Of a stretch of 64,000 nucleotides of DNA, positions 4,993-35,057 are shown in pieces. Positions within the stretch are counted from its first letter, which is position 1, and every line of letters begins with the position of its first letter. Location: NCBI RefSeq assembly GCF_002019605.1, contig NZ_KV917368.1:2945517-3009516 (forward strand), read 5' to 3'. Both the position numbers and the translations under genes were made by a program. The DNA comes from Alkalihalobacterium alkalinitrilicum. GTDB taxonomy: Bacteria; Bacillota; Bacilli; Bacillales; Bacillaceae_F. The notes beneath the pieces are model-generated. The model was not told the DNA's origin. It was given only the letters and a program-made list of their open reading frames with translations, and did no database searches.

Positions 4993-6417
4993 TTGAACGT
5001 ACTCTTCATTGCATCAGAATGCACACCATTTATTAAGACGGGTGGATTAGCCGATGTTATCGGTTCTCTACCCTCCTCCTTAAAAAAAACTGGTGTCAAT
5101 GTATCCATTATGTTACCCAACTACAGTGATATCCCAGAAGAATATAAGGAACGAATGACACTAGTAAAAACATTAACCGTCCATGTTGGCTGGAGAAAAC
5201 AATATTGTGGGTTAATGAAAATCGTTCATCAAGATATGACGTATTATTTTATTGATAATGAGTATTATTTTAAGCGCAAAGGTCTTTATGGACATTATGA
5301 CGACGGTGAACGCTTTGCATTTTTTAATCATGCGGTTATCGATGTGCTTCCTTATTTAGACGAAAAACCACAAGTTATTCATTGTCATGATTGGCAAACA
5401 GGTCTAATACCTGCATACATTAAAACTATGTATACATACCAACCGTTTTATCGTGATATAAAGACAGTGTTTACAATTCATAACCTTATGTATCAAGGGA
5501 TTTATCCTGCAACCATCTTTCAAGATCTTCTTAATTTTTCAGATGAGCACTATTTTGGAATTGAATTCAATGGCTGTATTAATTTTATGAAAGCCGCCCT
5601 TTTTCACGCCGATATATTAACAACGGTGAGTGAAACATACTCAAAAGAAATTCAGTATCCTTATTTTGGTGAGAATTTAGATAATATCCTTGGTCATCGA
5701 AAAGAAGATTTACACGGAATTGTGAATGGGTTAGATTACGATGAGTATAATCCCCAAACCGACCCGTATATCTTTAAGAATTTCAAACATTCACCCATTG
5801 AAAAGTTGGTAAATAAGCTTCTCTTGCAAGAAGAGTTAGGGCTTCCAAAAGCAGAAGACATTCCAATGATTGCGATTGTAAGTCGGTTTGTTGAGCAAAA
5901 AGGGTTTCCACTTATTACTCATGTTTTAGAAGAGCTCCTTTCCCTAGATATTCAGTTAGTCATTTTAGGAACGGGAGATGCAGAATTTGAGCATGCATTT
6001 AAGGATGCCGCATATCGTTATCCCGAGAAAGTTTCAACACGTGTTACCTTTAGCGAACCTCTAGCTAGGAAAATTTATGCAGCATCTGATTTGTTTTTAA
6101 TGCCTTCACGCTTTGAACCATGTGGAATTGGTCAGCTGATCGCCTTAAGATATGAAAGTGTTCCAATTGTAAGAGAAACTGGTGGATTGAAAGACACAAT
6201 TGTACCTTATGATGAGTTTACTAGTAGCGGAAACGGATTTAGCTTTACCCATTACAATGCACACGACATGCTATATACGATTAAACGAGCAATTGAATTT
6301 TATCATGACAAAGACCATTGGTTTACATTACTCGAAAATGTTTATCAAGCTAATTATTCATGGGAACATTCGGCCAAACGTTATACAGATCTGTATATGA
6401 AAACCTTAAAGGGTTAA
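4993..6417 (+). CDS. glgA: glycogen synthase GlgA (ADP-glucose type, GT5)
   Basis: Extends alpha-1,4-glucan chains from ADP-glucose. The N-terminus reads NVLFIASECTPFIKTGGLADV, with the KTGGL loop that binds ADP-glucose at residues 15-19. The second Rossmann domain carries the retaining-glycosyltransferase motif SRFEPCGIGQLIALRYE followed by ETGGLKD. I chose TTG at 4993 because AAGGAG (4978-4983) lies nine bases upstream and the protein then begins exactly where GlgA homologues do. ATG codons at 4969 and 4984 are in frame but poorly spaced. The protein has 474 residues. It is the fourth gene of the glg operon. Confidence 0.95.
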   Translation: MNVLFIASECTPFIKTGGLADVIGSLPSSLKKTGVNVSIMLPNYSDIPEEYKERMTLVKTLTVHVGWRKQYCGLMKIVHQDMTYYFIDNEYYFKRKGLYGHYDDGERFAFFNHAVIDVLPYLDEKPQVIHCHDWQTGLIPAYIKTMYTYQPFYRDIKTVFTIHNLMYQGIYPATIFQDLLNFSDEHYFGIEFNGCINFMKAALFHADILTTVSETYSKEIQYPYFGENLDNILGHRKEDLHGIVNGLDYDEYNPQTDPYIFKNFKHSPIEKLVNKLLLQEELGLPKAEDIPMIAIVSRFVEQKGFPLITHVLEELLSLDIQLVILGTGDAEFEHAFKDAAYRYPEKVSTRVTFSEPLARKIYAASDLFLMPSRFEPCGIGQLIALRYESVPIVRETGGLKDTIVPYDEFTSSGNGFSFTHYNAHDMLYTIKRAIEFYHDKDHWFTLLENVYQANYSWEHSAKRYTDLYMKTLKG

Positions 6418-6429
6418 GGAGTGGAGAGT

Positions 6430-8859
6430 ATGTTTTCAAGCAAAGAGTCATTTAAACTCGCTTTTATCGATAATTTGGAAACAAAGTTTGGAAAAGTACT
6501 AGAAGAAGCCACCCCTATGGAAATTTACCAAACGATTGGAACGCTCGTGAAAGAAAAAATGAATAGAAGTTGGATGGCAACGAATAAACGGTATTTAAAA
6601 AATGAAGAAAAACAAGTTTATTATTTTTCAATGGAGTTTTTGTTAGGAAGACTACTAGAAAGTAATTTACTTAATACAGGTACATTAAATATTGTTAAGG
6701 AAGCACTATTAGAATTAGGAATTAATCCAGAACATATTTTTGAACAAGAGCATGATGCTGGTTTAGGTAATGGTGGTTTAGGTCGGCTCGCTGCTTGTTT
6801 TTTAGATTCCTTAGCTTCTCTCGGACTTCCAGGCCACGGAGTTGGAATTCGATATAAATACGGACTATTTCAACAAAAGTTGATAGACGGACATCAAGTA
6901 GAACTACCAGATTATTGGTTAGAAGAAGACTATGTTTGGGAAGTACGTCGCTCTGATAAAGCAATTGGGGTTCGTTTTGGTGGAGAAGTACACCCTGAGG
7001 TTGTCGATGGCAAATTGATATTCCATCATACCGATTTCGAAACTGTTATGGCTGTTCCATATGATGTTCCTATTGTTGGTTACGAAAACCAAACCGTTAA
7101 TACGTTACGTTTATGGAGTGCCGAGTCAACGACTAACGATTTCAACTTCCATTCTTCTAATAGAAATGACTATTATAAATATCTAGAATACAAACGTTCA
7201 ATTGAATCCATTTCCGAATTTCTTTATCCCGATGATTCATTTTACGAGGGGAAACTACTTCGCCTTAAGCAACAATATTTTCTTGTTTCAGCTGGGATTC
7301 AAAGCATCATTAAAATGTTTAAACACAAATATAACAATGACTTAAAAAAGTTGCCCGATAAAATTACATTACAAATTAATGATACTCATCCAAGCTTAGT
7401 CGTCCCAGAGTTAATGAGAATCTTAATTGATGAAGAAGGCTTAGGTTGGGATGAAGCCTGGCAGATTACTACTCAAACAGTCGCATATACAAACCATACA
7501 ACATTGAGTGAAGCACTTGAGAAGTGGCCCGTTTCTTTAGTTCAACAGCTTATTCCACGAATTTATATGATTATTGAAGAAATTAATGAACGGTTCTGTC
7601 AAATGCTATGGTTCGATTTCCCTGAATTACGTGATAAAATTCCGCAAATGGCTATCATTGCCTATGATCAAGTTCATATGGCTCATTTAGCCATCGTTGG
7701 GAGTTTCAGTGTTAACGGCGTAGCAAAAATTCATACAGATATTTTAAAAGCAAAAGAAATGAAAGACTTCTATACTGTTTATCCAAATAAATATAATAAT
7801 AAAACAAATGGAATTACTCATAGGCGTTGGCTCATGAATGCGAATCCAAAATTAGCCGATTTAATTAGTGAAACTATCGGTAATAAGTGGATCAGCCAAC
7901 CAAAAGAACTAATTGGTTTACTAAAGTATGCTTCTGATCCAGCGTTTCAGCAAAAAGTGAGTATGGTCAAACAAGAGAATAAAAGAACACTCGCCAAATT
8001 AATTAAAGAGCAATGTAATATTATAGTTGATGAACAGTCCATTTTCGATGTTCAAATTAAACGACTACATGGATATAAACGCCAACTAATGAATATTTTC
8101 CATATTATTCATTTATATAATGTACTAAGAGAAAATCCAAACCTAGATATAACACCGCGTACTTTTATTTTTGGTGCCAAAGCAGCACCTAGTTATTACT
8201 TTGCAAAAGAGGTCATCAATCTTATTGTCACAGCGGCCAATCTAATTAATAATGACCCGATTGTTAACAATAAACTAAAAATCGTTTTCCTTGAAAACTA
8301 CAGTGTTTCTCTTGCTGAACAAATTATTCCAGCAGCCGATGTTAGCCAACAAATTTCAACAGCGAGTAAAGAAGCCTCTGGAACAGGTAATATGAAACTC
8401 ATGATGAATGGTGCACTAACACTCGGAACGTTAGATGGAGCTAATCTAGAGATTAAAGAAATGGTTGGAGACGATAATATTTTCATATTTGGTTTAACAG
8501 CTGAAGAAGTGTTAAATTATTATCAATATGGTGGCTATAATGCTAGATATATCTACAATACTGATCATCGTATTCGAACTATACTCGATCAATTAGTCAA
8601 TGGATTTTTCAATAAAGATGAATATGAATTTAAGGATATTTATTACAATATACTTTCAAACAACGATGAGTTTTTTGTTTTAAAAGACTTCGATAGTTAT
8701 ATTGAAGCTCAAGAAATGGTCGATCAAAATTATCGAAATCAAAAAAATTGGTTAAAGAAAAGTATTACCAACATTGCTCATTCAGGTAAGTTCTCCAGTG
8801 ACCGTACGATTTCCGAGTATGCTAGTGAAATATGGCAACTAAGCCCTGTTCAAGTTTAA
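6430..8859 (+). CDS. glgP: glycogen/maltodextrin phosphorylase GlgP
   Basis: Releases glucose-1-phosphate from glycogen with phosphate. It is a 809-residue GT35 enzyme with GLGNGGLGRLAACFLDSLA near residue 110 and the pyridoxal-phosphate lysine in GTGNMKLMMNGALTLGTLDG. The start is set by AAGGAG at 6416-6421, eight bases before ATG 6430; an in-frame GTG at 6421 overlaps that site and is unlikely. It is the last gene of the operon, placed with the synthetic genes as in B. subtilis, so the same transcript encodes storage and mobilisation. A strong hairpin follows at once. Confidence 0.96.
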   Translation: MFSSKESFKLAFIDNLETKFGKVLEEATPMEIYQTIGTLVKEKMNRSWMATNKRYLKNEEKQVYYFSMEFLLGRLLESNLLNTGTLNIVKEALLELGINPEHIFEQEHDAGLGNGGLGRLAACFLDSLASLGLPGHGVGIRYKYGLFQQKLIDGHQVELPDYWLEEDYVWEVRRSDKAIGVRFGGEVHPEVVDGKLIFHHTDFETVMAVPYDVPIVGYENQTVNTLRLWSAESTTNDFNFHSSNRNDYYKYLEYKRSIESISEFLYPDDSFYEGKLLRLKQQYFLVSAGIQSIIKMFKHKYNNDLKKLPDKITLQINDTHPSLVVPELMRILIDEEGLGWDEAWQITTQTVAYTNHTTLSEALEKWPVSLVQQLIPRIYMIIEEINERFCQMLWFDFPELRDKIPQMAIIAYDQVHMAHLAIVGSFSVNGVAKIHTDILKAKEMKDFYTVYPNKYNNKTNGITHRRWLMNANPKLADLISETIGNKWISQPKELIGLLKYASDPAFQQKVSMVKQENKRTLAKLIKEQCNIIVDEQSIFDVQIKRLHGYKRQLMNIFHIIHLYNVLRENPNLDITPRTFIFGAKAAPSYYFAKEVINLIVTAANLINNDPIVNNKLKIVFLENYSVSLAEQIIPAADVSQQISTASKEASGTGNMKLMMNGALTLGTLDGANLEIKEMVGDDNIFIFGLTAEEVLNYYQYGGYNARYIYNTDHRIRTILDQLVNGFFNKDEYEFKDIYYNILSNNDEFFVLKDFDSYIEAQEMVDQNYRNQKNWLKKSITNIAHSGKFSSDRTISEYASEIWQLSPVQV

Positions 8860-26954: not shown

Positions 26955-27524
26955 TCAATATATATAAGAATATAATTCTTCTACATTTTGATCATTACCG
27001 TAATGGGTTATAAAATATAATATGCCGTCTGCTGCATTTCCGTTGAGATAATAATCTAAATCATGCATAATTCGATGAGCTAAAATAACACCTTCAACGT
27101 CATGGTCATTTATTGCTTTTTCTATACAAGCGACAACGTTCATAATATCCTGTTCTAAACTAGATTCAGAAACGTTTTCTAATATAGAATTTGTTTTTGC
27201 TAAAAGAGATTTTAATTCTTCTTGTCTATTTGTCCATGAAAAGTTTTGATGCCCTTGCCATCCTACAGCTACATTGAGCGTTTTATGAGAGCTAGAAATC
27301 ACTTGTTTTACTTCTTCTATTTCACTAACGTCTATATTTTCGTTTTTTTCTTCTTCATTTGATACCTCTTCAACTCCTTCAATGGATGGTATAATTTCTT
27401 CACTTTCTTCATTTACCTGTACGGTACTATCTTTACTTTGTTGATAAATAACCCCTGTTAGGGCTCCAATGAAAATTAGTAGAACTACAGCAATGCCCCC
27501 ATAACCCAAGGTTTTTCTAGTCAT
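26955..27524 (-). CDS. membrane-anchored protein of unknown function
   Basis: 189 residues from ATG 27524, chosen because AGGAGGGG lies five bases upstream. Residues 7-30 form one membrane anchor (GGIAVVLLIFIGALTGVIY). A strongly acidic linker follows (EESEEIIPSIEGVEEVSNEE), then a helical external domain containing LNVAVGWQGHQNFSWTNRQE, ACIEKAINDHDVEGVILAHR and IMHDLDYYLNG. I do not recognise the family. The conserved-looking histidines could be functional, but nothing in the context identifies a role. Confidence 0.7.
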   Translation of the reverse strand: MTRKTLGYGGIAVVLLIFIGALTGVIYQQSKDSTVQVNEESEEIIPSIEGVEEVSNEEEKNENIDVSEIEEVKQVISSSHKTLNVAVGWQGHQNFSWTNRQEELKSLLAKTNSILENVSESSLEQDIMNVVACIEKAINDHDVEGVILAHRIMHDLDYYLNGNAADGILYFITHYGNDQNVEELYSYIY

Positions 27525-27860
27525 GAAACCCCTCCTAATAGAATACTTACTTTCCACTATAAGGGAATATAGAATTAGTAACAAGAAAAGAAAATCGTAG
27601 TTTACTGGTCATTTCTAACAATATGTCACAAAGTTTCCTTTATTTATTTTTGTTATGACAAATCTTATAACTTTTTTCATTATAATTATTGCTTTTATGC
27701 TATTATTTTCTAAAAAGTGTCGAAAAATTTCACCAAATCACCTCCCTTCTTTTTACATTTTTTGTTATTATTTTTATTTATAATTTTTATAACTTTTAAA
27801 TCTATTAAGAGTTGATGTAAAATCAAAGATAACCATAAAGAAGTCGAATATTCACTTGAA

Positions 27861-27927
27861 AAGGAGTTTATGGTAACCGAATAATAAGACCATGCATGCC
27901 TTGCACTAGCTAATCCTGGTGCAAGGC
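27861..27927 (+). promoter_or_regulatory. structured leader or small RNA upstream of the aimR-like gene
   Basis: The 587-nt gap 27525-28111 is AT-rich and gene-free. Inside it, AAGGAG precedes a four-codon frame ATG GTA ACC GAA TAA (27870-27884). ATGGT then pairs with a downstream ACCAT, and a perfect 9-bp hairpin GCCTTGCAC / GTGCAAGGC (12-nt loop) ends at 27927. No T-run follows, so it is not a standard terminator. It may be a translational leader, an mRNA-processing site or a small RNA. Confidence 0.35.
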
Positions 27928-28033
27928 ATCTGTTTCGTATTACAATGAGAGATATATTGTGTTACTTTTTCTCTTATTATGTTTTTAAACCTAGTATTCC
28001 TCTTAATTTTACAATAATAGTACTTTTAATTCA

Positions 28034-28083
28034 TTGACTACAACAAAATTAAGGTGTTATATTCAATTTGTGGAATAATTCCA
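28034..28083 (+). promoter_or_regulatory. sigma-A promoter and palindrome of the aimR-like gene
   Basis: TTGACT (28034-28039), 18-base spacer, TATATT (28058-28063). Just downstream is the palindrome TGGAAT-A-ATTCCA (28071-28083), placed where a bound protein would block or modulate initiation. No ComA-box was found. Confidence 0.55.
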
Positions 28084-28111
28084 AAAAAACAGATCAAAAG
28101 GGCTGATAGAA

Positions 28112-29137
28112 ATGGATGATAATAATCAAGACATCTTAGAATATCTTTCTTCAGCAGATGATATTAAACAAACGATAATTAGTTTAAATCCTGCCACTGC
28201 TCTAGCACGAACAGCACTAGAATATGTCATAAACAATAATATGACTGATGTACTAGACCACTTAATAGAGAATTTATCAGCTTCTGAAAATGAAGAAAGT
28301 CAGATCTGGGCAGAAGTTTATCGAATTGATCGCGAAGTCGTAAAAGGTCAGTTAAGTTTAATAGAGGCAACTAGTACATTAACATACATACAAACGAACT
28401 CCAAAGAAATCAATGCTTTGAGAAAAGTCCTTCAATTATATAATTACTATGACTTAAAAAGTTTCGAAATGATTTCTAGTATGAGTGAGTTAGTACGTGC
28501 CGAAATTGAGCATTTAGAAGATGGCTATATGAAAAATTCTTTACTAACAAGATTTGGGTTAATTATGCAGTCAGTTTATGTACACTTAAATCAGTTAGAA
28601 TTATCAAGAAACTACGGAAACTTTATTTGCAAAAATGAAGTTAATGAACTTGCTATAGGAATAGCTTTTAAGAATTTAGGCAACTCTTTTATTCAATCTA
28701 ATTTAGATTTTGCTGTTGCCGCTTTTAACAAATCAAAAGAAGTATTTAAAAAATTAGGCCACCATGTTGAACTAACCAATGCACAGAGTAGCCTTAATTT
28801 TGCCTATTGTTTCTGGAACAGACCTGAAAAGTATAGTAGAACATCACCTTACAGCGCTCTTGAAGAAAAACAGGGATACGCTTTTTACTTAATCAAAACT
28901 AAGAACTTTGAAGAAGCAAAAAAGCTCTTAGATGAAGTAAAACCAAAAATTACAAATAATTTCCAACTAGGCTTCCATTACTATTACAGAGGAATATTAG
29001 AAAATAATGAAGATCGATTTTATGAGTCAGTTACACACTTTAAAAAAGCAGGTGATTACTACTATAGAAATTTACCTCTAATCGAGTTAAAAAAACTCGG
29101 GGTAAATAACGCAGTACTCGATGCTTTGCGTGTATAA
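28112..29137 (+). CDS. AimR-like (arbitrium-family) TPR peptide receptor without helix-turn-helix
   Basis: 341 residues of tandem TPR-like helices. Several segments match phage SPbeta/phi3T AimR as I remember it: ARTALEYVINNNM (AimR ARSALEY), EVYRIDREVVKGQLSLIEAT (KVYKIHRELSKGE..EAT) and VLQLYNYYDLKSF (LLLYNYYDMQDY). AimR proteins of about 380 residues start with a DNA-binding helix-turn-helix. Here the matching part begins about 48 residues earlier in the chain, and an in-frame TAA at 28076-28078 prevents extension, so that domain is missing. AAAAGGG precedes the ATG. The gene is followed by a secreted propeptide gene in the same transcript. Rap-type regulators are the main alternative. It probably binds the peptide and another macromolecule. 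Confidence 0.8.
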   Translation: MDDNNQDILEYLSSADDIKQTIISLNPATALARTALEYVINNNMTDVLDHLIENLSASENEESQIWAEVYRIDREVVKGQLSLIEATSTLTYIQTNSKEINALRKVLQLYNYYDLKSFEMISSMSELVRAEIEHLEDGYMKNSLLTRFGLIMQSVYVHLNQLELSRNYGNFICKNEVNELAIGIAFKNLGNSFIQSNLDFAVAAFNKSKEVFKKLGHHVELTNAQSSLNFAYCFWNRPEKYSRTSPYSALEEKQGYAFYLIKTKNFEEAKKLLDEVKPKITNNFQLGFHYYYRGILENNEDRFYESVTHFKKAGDYYYRNLPLIELKKLGVNNAVLDALRV

Positions 29138-29171
29138 CTATAAATATTTCAAAGATAAGGAGAAATTATTG

Positions 29172-29336
29172 ATGAAAAAGTTTCTTTGTGGATTGTTATT
29201 AATCTCTGCTTTAGTAATTAGTTCACCATTTGCAGAAACAGCTGACCCTAATGGGAGTCCAAGAATTCAAAGCACACCAATCGAATTAGCTGATCCTAAT
29301 GGAAGTCCAAGAATTCAAAGTGGAGACCTAATATAA
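29172..29336 (+). CDS. AimP/Phr-like secreted signal propeptide with duplicated peptide unit
   Basis: 54 residues starting at ATG 29172, with AAGGAG nine bases upstream, 34 nt after the receptor gene. The N-terminus is a signal peptide (MKKFLCGLLLISALVISSPFA) like that of AimP and Phr precursors. The rest is two copies of ADPNGSPRIQS (residues 24-34 and 40-50) separated by TPIEL and ending GDLI. The two 33-nt units differ at three positions, all synonymous third bases. The mature peptide, probably 5-10 residues within the unit, would be exported, processed and re-imported by an oligopeptide permease to bind the receptor. The exact cut sites cannot be read from sequence. Confidence 0.82.
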   Translation: MKKFLCGLLLISALVISSPFAETADPNGSPRIQSTPIELADPNGSPRIQSGDLI

Positions 29337-29367
29337 AAAACAGTGGGAAAATCCCACTGTTTTTTAT
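29335..29367 (+). terminator. intrinsic terminator of the receptor-propeptide operon
   Basis: AAAACAGTGGGA pairs with TCCCACTGTTTT around a three-base loop, followed by T residues. It begins at the propeptide stop, marking a two-gene unit. Confidence 0.92.
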
Positions 29368-33438: not shown

Positions 33439-33521
33439 TAATTTACTAGCTTGTGATTAAATAGTATAAGGTATGGATTTTTTCCTTATCAATGACATAG
33501 AAACCAAAGGAAGTGTACGAT

Positions 33522-35057
33522 TTGGATAGTAGTGATAGGTCGATTTTTAAAATTTCTGTAGGGATAGCTGCCATTTTTGTATTAATTGGTGTGCTTATAC
33601 CTAACCAACTAAATACCGCAATGGGAGTAGCTCAAAGCTTTGTACTTGAATCCTTCGGGTGGTTCTACCAGTTAGTAGCCACGTTTTTCCTTGGCTTCAC
33701 GATTTATATGATCTTTAGTAAATACGGAAAAATCAAGTTAGGAAAGCCAGATTCAAAACCAGAATACAGTCGTCCAACTTGGTTTGCAATGTTATTTTCA
33801 GCGGGTATGGGAATTGGACTCTTATTCTACGGAGTTTCAGAACCTATTGCCCACTTTACAAACCCGCCATTCGGTGACGGAAGTACAGAACAATCAGCTA
33901 TTTTAGGTATGCGATACACATGGCTTCACTGGGGCTTACATGCATGGGCTATTTATGCCATTGTAGCGTTAGCACTTGCTTATCAAAAATTTAACAAAGG
34001 TGCACCTGGATTAATGAGTGCCACTCTTTACCCTGTGCTTGGTGAAAAGGTGAAAGGTCCGATCGGTCAAACGGTTGATGTCGTAGCCGTTTTTGCAACA
34101 TTGTTTGGGGTAGCTGCCTCGCTTGGATTAGGCTCACAACAAATCAATGCTGGCTTAGAATACTTAATTGGTATTCCTAACAACTTCATGGTTCAAATGG
34201 TGATTATGGGGATCATCACTGTTCTTTTCATCATCTCAGCAAACACAGGAATTTCACGTGGAATTAAATATTTAAGTAACGCAAATATGTCGATTGCCAC
34301 GCTATTATTTTTTGCCATGTTAATTCTGGGTCCTACTTTGTTCTTACTTAATATGTTTACTACAAGCTTAGGAGCATACATCCAAAATGTTGCTCTAATG
34401 GGATTACGTATTTCTCCATTTGATGCGAATGAAGCAGCATGGACTCAAGGCTGGACGATTTTCTATTGGGCTTGGTGGATTTCATGGACACCGTTTGTCG
34501 GTATGTTCATTGCTCGTGTATCAAAAGGGAGAACCATCCGTGAGTTTACAATAGCCGTACTTCTTGTCCCATCTCTCGTATGTGGTCTATGGTTTACTGT
34601 CTTTGGCGGAACTGGAATATACTTAGAACTTGTTCAAGGATTAAATGTTTCTAGCCAAGGTCTTGAAACGGCTTTATTCTATGTATATCAACAATTAACA
34701 TTTGGAATTTTACTTTCAATCTTAACTGTCGCATTAATTACTACGTTTTTCGTTACTTCCGCTGACTCTGCTACTTTCGTCTTAGGGATGCTAACGACAG
34801 GAGGAAAGTTAAACCCTTCAAGTCGTGTCAAAGTAACGTGGGGAATTATTTTAGTTTCTGCTACACTTGTATTAATGGCATCTGGTGGTTTAGCTGGATT
34901 GCAGACAGCAATTATCGTAAGTGCCCTTCCGTTAACTTTTATTGTTTTGGTCATGTGTTATGGTTTAATTAAAGCACTTAATCAAGAACTTAATGATGAT
35001 CAGTTAGTTAAACAAAAGAAAAAAGAGAAGCTGTTTTCTAAAAAGACAGCAAGTTAG
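33522..35057 (+). CDS. opuD: BCCT-family glycine betaine transporter (OpuD-like)
   Basis: Secondary Na+-coupled uptake of glycine betaine or related osmoprotectants. The 511 residues have 12 membrane helices, the glycine-rich SAGMGIGLLFYGVSEPI stretch and the BCCT signature WAWWISWTPFVGMFIARVSK. The C-terminal tail is charged (KQKKKEKLFSKK). I take TTG 33522 because AAAGGAAG lies eight bases upstream; a GTG at 33513 overlaps that site. Choline or carnitine cannot be excluded as substrate. A strong terminator follows, so it is a single-gene unit. Confidence 0.92.
   Translation: MDSSDRSIFKISVGIAAIFVLIGVLIPNQLNTAMGVAQSFVLESFGWFYQLVATFFLGFTIYMIFSKYGKIKLGKPDSKPEYSRPTWFAMLFSAGMGIGLLFYGVSEPIAHFTNPPFGDGSTEQSAILGMRYTWLHWGLHAWAIYAIVALALAYQKFNKGAPGLMSATLYPVLGEKVKGPIGQTVDVVAVFATLFGVAASLGLGSQQINAGLEYLIGIPNNFMVQMVIMGIITVLFIISANTGISRGIKYLSNANMSIATLLFFAMLILGPTLFLLNMFTTSLGAYIQNVALMGLRISPFDANEAAWTQGWTIFYWAWWISWTPFVGMFIARVSKGRTIREFTIAVLLVPSLVCGLWFTVFGGTGIYLELVQGLNVSSQGLETALFYVYQQLTFGILLSILTVALITTFFVTSADSATFVLGMLTTGGKLNPSSRVKVTWGIILVSATLVLMASGGLAGLQTAIIVSALPLTFIVLVMCYGLIKALNQELNDDQLVKQKKKEKLFSKKTAS

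What the first reader, a model, noticed from the sequence alone, without database searches (positions are those of the whole stretch)
28034..29367. Orphan arbitrium-like receptor-propeptide module on the chromosome
A receptor with several AimR-like segments (ARTALEY, EVYRIDRE..GQ..EAT, QLYNYYDL) is followed by a secreted propeptide and a strong terminator, with its own sigma-A promoter. Arbitrium pairs are known from SPbeta-like phages, where they control lysis-lysogeny, but no phage gene is seen within more than 25 kb on either side. The pair may be a host-domesticated signalling system with a new output. The similarity is from memory of AimR sequences, not a search.
Basis: partly seen in the sequence, partly recalled or inferred. 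Interest (0 to 1): 0.9.

Follow-up and report, generated by a model that had tools for sequence, protein, structure and literature searches.

The report
Chromosomal arbitrium-type receptor without DNA-binding domain
Alkali-loving bacilli carry on their own chromosome a signal peptide and a receptor of the kind that phages use to decide between killing and staying dormant, but this receptor has lost the part that binds DNA, so it probably passes the message on to another protein.

Summary
ORF 28112-29137 belongs to the AimR clade of RRNPPA peptide receptors (Pfam AimR E 9e-74; AlphaFold pLDDT 95.5; the 16 best PDB matches are AimR). A secreted propeptide with two ADPNGSPRIQS units follows 34 nt downstream, behind one promoter and before one terminator. 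It is no prophage: the same host genes flank it in two relatives of its genus (Alkalihalobacterium/Alkalihalobacillus group), and on the visible side in the third; dN/dS is about 0.11.

The clade holds 13 receptors from 12 genomes, all HTH-less; 12 have a propeptide with an xxxR[IV]x core. Seven of seven Evansella and Halalkalibacter genomes searched hold no HTH-bearing AimR above cut-off. Best reading: a host cell-cell signalling pair whose receptor acts through an unknown protein partner, in parallel to Rap-Phr.

The genus also keeps an AimR with HTH and without propeptide inside a molybdenum-cofactor cluster, and a separate large HTH-less AimR clade occurs across the order. Whether the HTH was lost once or more often is open (AU p 0.29). 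Chromosomal AimR genes are in print; I found no description of HTH-less ones in the searches and passages seen.

The parts
28034..28063 (+). promoter-like site TTGACT-18-TATATT with TG before the -10
   Evidence: found by consensus scan (number of such sites at chance level), nearly identical in 4 of 4 genus genomes
28064..28111 (+). 5' leader, nearly invariant in 4 of 4 genus genomes
   Evidence: alignment
28071..28083 (.). perfect palindrome TGGAATAATTCCA just after the -10; candidate operator or RNA hairpin
   Evidence: not seen upstream of the Evansella, Halalkalibacter and G395 receptors; no regulon seen
28112..29137 (+). HTH-less AimR-clade TPR receptor, 341 aa
29054..29056 (+). codon of Asp315, aligned with SPbeta AimR D360, which binds the peptide arginine
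   Evidence: alignment; role of D360 from passages of PMC6458997
29172..29336 (+). secreted propeptide, 54 aa, signal-peptide-like N-terminus
   Evidence: NCBIfam AimP_fam only 12.8 bits, cut-off 35
29241..29273 (+). repeat unit 1, ADPNGSPRIQS (putative pheromone)
29289..29321 (+). repeat unit 2, ADPNGSPRIQS
29333..29367 (+). intrinsic terminator
   Evidence: a similar stretch follows in BA299 and A. chitinilyticum, the aligned piece of A. elongatum is cut short

Best explanation
This is a host-encoded cell-cell signalling pair of the AimR clade. Receptor and propeptide are transcribed together (inferred from one promoter, a 34-nt gap and one terminator). The propeptide is exported by Sec and cut (inferred) to a short peptide around xxxR[IV]x(S), here GSPRIQ(S), given twice per molecule. 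The peptide returns through an oligopeptide permease (inferred from RRNPPA biology, recalled) and binds the concave side of the receptor's TPR superhelix, its arginine held by Asp315 (inferred from alignment with AimR D360). The receptor has no HTH, so it cannot act on an operator as AimR does. It most likely works as Rap does: peptide-driven closing of the superhelix makes or breaks binding to a protein partner, which is encoded elsewhere and unknown. Shown: AimR fold and kinship, HTH absence, linked propeptide, conservation in at least three genera, host location, purifying selection. Inferred: transport, maturation, peptide binding, protein partner.
For: AimR by profile and fold; AlphaFold model pLDDT 95.5, pTM 0.91; the 16 best PDB matches are AimR, TM on the model length 0.78-0.90, E 3.5e-16 to 6.7e-14; next come a MalT domain (3.9e-4) and a Rap (4.8e-4). 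HTH absent: a profile of 5 members aligns to PDB AimR chains only from residue 61-68, while the HTH paralogue of the same genome aligns from residue 1-7. An HTH profile gives 12-17 bits in the 4 genus members and 20 bits in G395, all from profile positions 66-90, the start of the TPR part, against 29-116 bits in the 36 receptors counted as HTH-bearing, most of which are its own seeds. No free-standing AimR-type HTH in the genome (only other hit E 0.21, broken frame). Conserved pair: 13 HTH-less receptors in 12 genomes; 12 have a propeptide that starts [ML][KR]K behind AGGAG, from 4 nt of overlap to 35 nt downstream, and 23 of 23 repeat units read xxxR[IV]x. Asp at the D360 column in 10 of 12, Asn in 2. 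Host locus. Self-contained: 0 of 7 Evansella/Halalkalibacter genomes have an HTH-bearing AimR above the Pfam cut-off. The 4 Halalkalibacter members lack the C-terminal helix by which AimR dimerises (its role from PMC6458997). Rap N-terminal domain: found in 0 of 4 genus genomes.
Against: No partner protein is known, and no neighbour was seen to be shared between Evansella, Halalkalibacter and the window's genus apart from the receptor (one weak 33%-identical match of an Evansella neighbour to a window protein some 7 kb from the receptor). The Rap-type three-helix bundle is missing too; only short helices 8-13 and 18-23 precede the TPRs. R228, which holds the C-terminus of AimP in SPbeta AimR, is not conserved; N202 is Ser, Ala or Gly and N206 is His, so peptide binding may differ. 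In the genus and in Evansella the C-terminal dimer helix is kept, so dimers or heterodimers remain possible. The AimP profile is not met. No expression or binding data.
Confidence: 0.6

Rival explanations
1. Split regulator: the HTH-less receptor forms mixed dimers with the HTH-bearing AimR of the same genome and blocks or tunes it, so that the peptide acts through the molybdenum-cofactor cluster where that paralogue lies.
For: Both are present in 4 of 4 genus genomes; the paralogue has an HTH but no propeptide was found behind it; the C-terminal dimer helix is kept in the genus.
Against: HTH-less receptors occur without an HTH-bearing AimR above cut-off in 7 of 7 Evansella and Halalkalibacter genomes (two sub-cut-off TPR-like matches there), so this cannot be the general function. 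The paralogue has Gln in place of D360 and a 4-residue gap at the N202 helix in 4 of 4, so it probably does not bind the same peptide.
Confidence: 0.15
2. Signal sink or jammer: the host receptor soaks up, or the host peptide imitates, arbitrium peptides and so disturbs the lysis-lysogeny choice of phages.
For: The peptide core xxxR[IV]x can be read in the register of AimP hexapeptides such as GMPRGA; a sink needs no DNA-binding part.
Against: The one alignment-based scan of viral contigs gave only 7 remote hits, 22-23% identity. Each receptor has its own propeptide in 12 of 13 cases, as in a self-signalling pair. Phages with matching peptides were not searched for.
Confidence: 0.1
3. The receptor still controls transcription directly, through a DNA- or RNA-polymerase-contacting surface outside the lost HTH.
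For: R82, which touches the DNA backbone in SPbeta AimR, is conserved in 12 of 12, and a perfect palindrome lies in the conserved leader.
Against: The base-reading positions N30, N32 and Y35 are gaps in 12 of 12; R82 is conserved in nearly all AimRs compared, so it says little; the palindrome was seen only in the genus.
Confidence: 0.07
4. Decaying relic of a prophage.
For: AimR is best known from phages.
Against: Intact 341-aa frame in 4 of 4 genus genomes, conserved flanks, dN/dS about 0.11, propeptide kept in 12 of 13.
Confidence: 0.02

Closest known systems
AimR-AimP arbitrium pair of SPbeta-group phages
   Same: TPR fold (TM 0.78-0.90), gene order receptor-propeptide, arginine-centred short peptide, Asp at the arginine-binding site in 10 of 12
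   Different: No HTH, host chromosomal locus, peptide units repeated up to six times, pocket residue R228 not kept; no link to lysogeny known (aimX was not searched for specifically)
Rap-Phr
   Same: Receptor without HTH, downstream secreted propeptide, presumed protein output
   Different: Sequence and fold closer to AimR; Rap N-terminal three-helix domain absent
RRNPP 'subfamily 21', chromosomal systems of Alkalihalobacilli (PMC12700828, Extended Data Fig. 10 legend, passage read)
   Same: Host group, and placement inside AimR in a sequence tree; may be these very genes
   Different: Its authors treat that placement as a discrepancy of the sequence tree. The members are in supplements that I could not read. 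The parts I read name HTH loss only for Rap and subfamily 17
Chromosomal AimR 'eavesdroppers' (PMC9765709, passages read)
   Same: AimR outside prophages
   Different: Almost 90% of those have no propeptide, this pair has one; the paper describes AimR as carrying an HTH

Membership tests
AimR (arbitrium receptor) | AimR TPR core by curated profile | tested here: met
   Pfam 248.8 bits (cut-off 26.7); NCBIfam 164.3 (cut-off 70)
[quoted passage not shown]
   positive control: the HTH paralogue
AimR (arbitrium receptor) | downstream AimP-type propeptide | tested here: inconclusive
   position, signal-like N-terminus and R-centred unit met; AimP_fam profile 12.8 bits against 35 not met
AimR (arbitrium receptor) | carried by a phage or other mobile element | tested here: not met
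   conserved host flanks: both sides in 3 genomes including the window, one side in the fourth; no structural, lysis or integration family among 10 neighbours
AimR (arbitrium receptor) | peptide-dependent control of aimX and lysogeny | not testable with these tools
   needs experiment; the next gene of 100 aa or more after the terminator is a thioesterase on the other strand; aimX was not searched for
Rap | N-terminal three-helix bundle (RapH_N) | tested here: not met
   only helices 8-13 and 18-23 before the TPRs; PF18801 in 0 of 4 genus genomes, control B. subtilis positive
Rap | no HTH; acts on a protein partner | tested here: inconclusive
   HTH absence shown; partner not testable here
RRNPPA superfamily | TPR superhelix receptor with adjacent secreted propeptide | tested here: met
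   (TPRs were not counted one by one)

The most novel reading that the evidence does not exclude
The AimR clade, known as the transcription factors of phage arbitrium, has given rise, possibly more than once, to DNA-binding-free host receptors with their own pheromones: a second, Rap-like way of peptide signalling. One branch is the alkaliphile clade of this window (13 receptors, 12 genomes); the other is a large clade across the order (73 of the receptors sampled), some with DPG-repeat propeptides. They signal through proteins, not DNA, and the curated name 'lysis-lysogeny pheromone receptor' misdescribes them.
Probability: 0.45. Interest if true: 0.85.

Novelty: new variant of a known kind. 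Interest (0 to 1): 0.7.

Why it matters
AimR is treated as the transcription factor of a phage decision. A host clade that kept the TPR fold, the arginine-binding Asp in most members and the propeptide, but has no DNA-binding domain, shows that the module can be rewired to a new output, as is proposed for the origin of Rap (PMC12700828). It is a small, testable system in culturable alkaliphiles. It also means that the curated NCBIfam name that these proteins would receive (AimR family lysis-lysogeny pheromone receptor; 7 of 7 proteins of several branches scanned pass its cut-off) says too much about function, and that AimR counts should not be read as phage communication.

Tried and rejected
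Single-protein pattern scans found nothing: genome contigs (9 stretches, no relative) and viral contigs (2 stretches, no relative); the five-member alignment did find relatives. A first AlphaFold run on 4 orthologues was poor (pLDDT 63) and is not used. The conserved palindrome was tried as an operator of a regulon: 19 matches in the genome against 12 for the reversed pattern, and the two one-mismatch matches lie inside coding frames; rejected. One HTH loss or more: the trees place the window clade inside the HTH-bearing clade, but an AU test does not reject all HTH-less receptors as one clade (p 0.286), so two losses are not claimed. The split-system idea was weakened. Decay was rejected. Generic Pfam cannot tell HTH from no HTH here (the HTH paralogue also hits AimR only), so I used a profile made from HTH-bearing members; most of its high scorers are its own seeds. 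Left out before the group counts: L036 and L023 (fragment, non-AimR TPR), L038 and one frame of L021 (cut by the locus edge), L055 (doubtful start), and L096, L102, L115, L122, which lie in the HTH-bearing half of the first tree but score only 2.5-10 bits for HTH and may be a further HTH-less or HTH-degenerate group.

Full report
WHERE IT LIES. The window is G000:C1:2945517-3009516 of a 5.5-Mb genome.

THE OBSERVATION. ORF 28112-29137 (341 aa) hits Pfam AimR at E 9.1e-74, NCBIfam lysogeny_AimR at 164 bits (cut-off 70) and PHROG 1728 at E 4.7e-47. After 34 nt follows a 54-aa ORF with AAGGAG before its ATG, a hydrophobic N-terminus and two ADPNGSPRIQS units, then a terminator. The promoter TTGACT-18-TATATT and the leader down to the start codon are nearly identical in 4 of 4 genomes, although synonymous sites of the receptor gene differ by 56-77% between them.

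HOST, NOT PHAGE. A cupredoxin-like gene, the receptor, a thioesterase gene and an iron-type alcohol dehydrogenase gene lie in the same order in the window, BA299 and A. chitinilyticum; A. elongatum shows only the upstream side because its contig ends just after the propeptide. ORF 26955-27584 is present in 3 of 4 and absent in BA299; A. elongatum has one extra gene upstream of the receptor. dN/dS is 0.107-0.122 in 4 of 6 pairs; in 2 pairs dS was saturated. Of 10 neighbours scanned against PHROGs, 4 hit (one peptidase family, three of unknown function, among them a strong match of the transporter at 33513-35057) and 6 did not; no structural, lysis or integration family appeared.

THE MISSING DOMAIN. 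In phmmer against the PDB the window protein aligns with AimR chains only from chain residue 62-71, and a five-member profile only from 61-68. The other AimR of the same genome aligns from chain residue 1-7, so the search sees the HTH when it is there. NCBIfam positions agree: 59-365 for the window, from 57-62 on for four relatives, 1-365 for the paralogue. A profile built from HTH N-termini scores 12-17 bits in the four genus members and 20 bits in G395, all from the start of the TPR part; the 36 receptors counted as HTH-bearing score 29-116. The three frames upstream (27800-28111) hold stops. The genome has no free-standing AimR-type HTH apart from one E 0.21 match in a broken frame. The AlphaFold model from 95 sequences (pLDDT 95.5, pTM 0.91) shows two short helices, 8-13 and 18-23, and then a run of helices like TPRs. 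Foldseek ranks 16 AimR chains first (TM 0.78-0.90 on the model length); a MalT domain follows at 3.9e-4 and a Rap at 4.8e-4.

THE CLADE. A genome-contig scan with the alignment gave 10 loci: 3 of the same genus, 4 Halalkalibacter, 3 Evansella. With the window, G395 (L040, another family of the order) and a second copy in E. vedderi this makes 13 receptors in 12 genomes, 328-347 aa, all without HTH (12 of 12 in the alignment; the 13th by its sequence). Twelve of 13 have a propeptide, starting between 4 nt before and 35 nt after the end of the receptor gene, each behind AGGAG; for the first E. vedderi copy none was seen before the next receptor. The 12 propeptides hold 23 units xxxR[IV]x; 21 are followed by Ser, one by Thr, and one ends the chain. 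Units: GSPRIQ, TSPRIQ, TSPRIE (genus), DNIRVN, DNIRIN, GSDRVN, GSDRVK (Halalkalibacter), ASFRVR, ASFRVC (Evansella), VDFRVR (G395). Units per propeptide: 2, 1, 6, 1 (window, BA299, A. chitinilyticum, A. elongatum); 2, 2, 1, 2 (H. okhensis, alkaliphilus, alkalisediminis, akibai); 1, 1, 1 (Evansella); 3 (G395). In G395 the last unit ends the chain at VDFRVR, which puts the arginine at position 4 of a C-terminal hexapeptide, as in GMPRGA and SAIRGA; that the mature peptide is such a hexamer is my inference. Repeated pheromones, up to six copies, are known in AimR-type propeptides (PMC9765709, passages).

THE POCKET. SPbeta AimR residues were taken from passages of PMC6458997 and mapped by alignment. 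D360, which binds the peptide arginine, is Asp in 10 of 12 clade members and Asn in 2. F276 and Y159 are kept in 12 of 12. Against a simple AimP-like mode, N202 is Ser, Ala or Gly, N206 is His in 12 of 12, and R228, which holds the peptide C-terminus, is not conserved. N30, N32 and Y35, which read the bases, are gaps in 12 of 12. The C-terminal dimer helix is kept in the genus and in Evansella but absent in 4 of 4 Halalkalibacter.

TREE. In a first tree of 118 receptors (of 123 distinct ones extracted) the window clade sits among HTH-bearing AimRs, and 73 HTH-less receptors stand apart. In a careful tree of 66 rows the window clade has 100/100 support and lies within the half that holds the HTH-bearing AimRs (34 rows 100/100; the nearer fork of 29 rows 96/90), near phage AimRs; 32 sampled rows of the other HTH-less clade are also 100/100. 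Holding all HTH-less rows together costs 7 log units and is not rejected (p-AU 0.286). So separate losses are the better tree, not a proven one. The order search covered 397 genomes, 85 with a hit at E 1e-3 and 79 over the cut-off. At most 5 candidates per genome were scored, its list was cut, and I left most of the weakest listed matches unfetched.

PARTNERS. All 4 genus genomes also hold an HTH-bearing AimR. Of 7 Evansella and Halalkalibacter genomes none has one above the Pfam cut-off; two of them have a weak sub-cut-off match of the TPR kind. Neighbours are shared within Halalkalibacter but not between the genera. Of 10 neighbours chosen there, Pfam names 9 with metabolic, transport or repair functions and one as an ArsR-type HTH protein; two more had no Pfam hit. 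The Rap N-terminal domain was found in 0 of 4 genus genomes, with B. subtilis positive among the controls. The viral scan gave 7 hits, all 22-23% identity; phage and plasmid records give 22-30%.

MECHANISM. The best reading is a self-signalling pair in which the peptide changes the shape of a receptor that acts on a protein partner. Shown: fold, kinship, HTH absence, linked propeptide, conservation, host site. Inferred: export, cutting, uptake, binding, partner. I put the whole at 0.6, and the AimR-clade and HTH-less parts above 0.95.

LITERATURE. PMC9765709 (passages) reports that 87% of AimR hits lie in mobile elements and that almost 90% of those outside prophages have no propeptide. PMC12700828 (passages and section 7) mentions chromosomal systems of Alkalihalobacilli ('subfamily 21') inside AimR in a sequence tree, which its authors hold to be a discrepancy of that tree, and names HTH loss only for Rap and its subfamily 17. 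PMC10075063 (passages and section 7) lists novel RRNPP clusters; its main text does not name these genera. The paper searches (30 of 285 listed; 20 of 26; 0 papers; 6; 8) showed no title or abstract start on an HTH-less AimR; I saw listings and the passages named, no supplements.

Noticed in passing
G000:C1:1890855-1891793 (L017, minus strand); L014, L015, L016: A second AimR, with HTH and no propeptide found, lies in all 4 genus genomes in a cluster with moaC, a moaB-like gene, mobB and a molybdopterin oxidoreductase gene, with moeA, moaE and moaD in 3 of 4 and nitrite reductase farther on (Pfam run on the A. elongatum copy), next to a conserved small protein that reads MKIGTKVKYKDK... in the window's genome. 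It has Gln at the peptide-arginine site: perhaps an AimR turned into a host regulator of anaerobic metabolism.
   Followed up: partly
G005:C7:92176-100440 and G006:C1:4444491-4454041 (L021-L038): In the sister genus, tandem arrays of HTH-bearing AimR genes: seven in G005; in G006 five whole ones and one split into two pieces around genes that look like a transposon (by recall). They lie beside a gene that looks like hpf (by recall). The last gene is followed by a propeptide with three VxPL...GG-type units.
   Followed up: partly
among L041-L124, e.g. L106, L108, L116, L118, L123: A large HTH-less AimR clade across the order (73 sampled receptors, by low HTH score and tree). By a strict filter 27 of 73 have a ribosome-site-bearing, signal-like small ORF downstream, 13 of these with DPG and 9 with DPG more than once.
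   Followed up: partly
L096, L102, L115, L122: Four more receptors score only 2.5-10 bits for HTH although they sit in the HTH-bearing half of the first tree: a possible further loss or decay of the HTH.
   Followed up: no
28071-28083: Perfect palindrome TGGAATAATTCCA in a 5' leader that is nearly invariant in 4 of 4 genomes; not seen in the other genera.
   Followed up: yes
27896-27929: 14-pair hairpin with T-rich sequence behind it on the + strand, upstream of the promoter, with no + strand ORF of 100 aa or more since 26840; possible end of a small RNA.
   Followed up: no
26955-27584 (-): ORF of 209 aa, signal-like, no Pfam hit, present in 3 of 4 genomes near the receptor and absent in BA299.
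   Followed up: no
L055 (G142): AimR with an N-terminal extension of only 10 aa but a phage-type propeptide ending GFGRGA; start or truncation not resolved.
   Followed up: no
L140:4715-5758 and 5965-6984: E. vedderi has two HTH-less receptors in tandem; a propeptide was found only behind the second: a possible sender-listener pair.
   Followed up: partly
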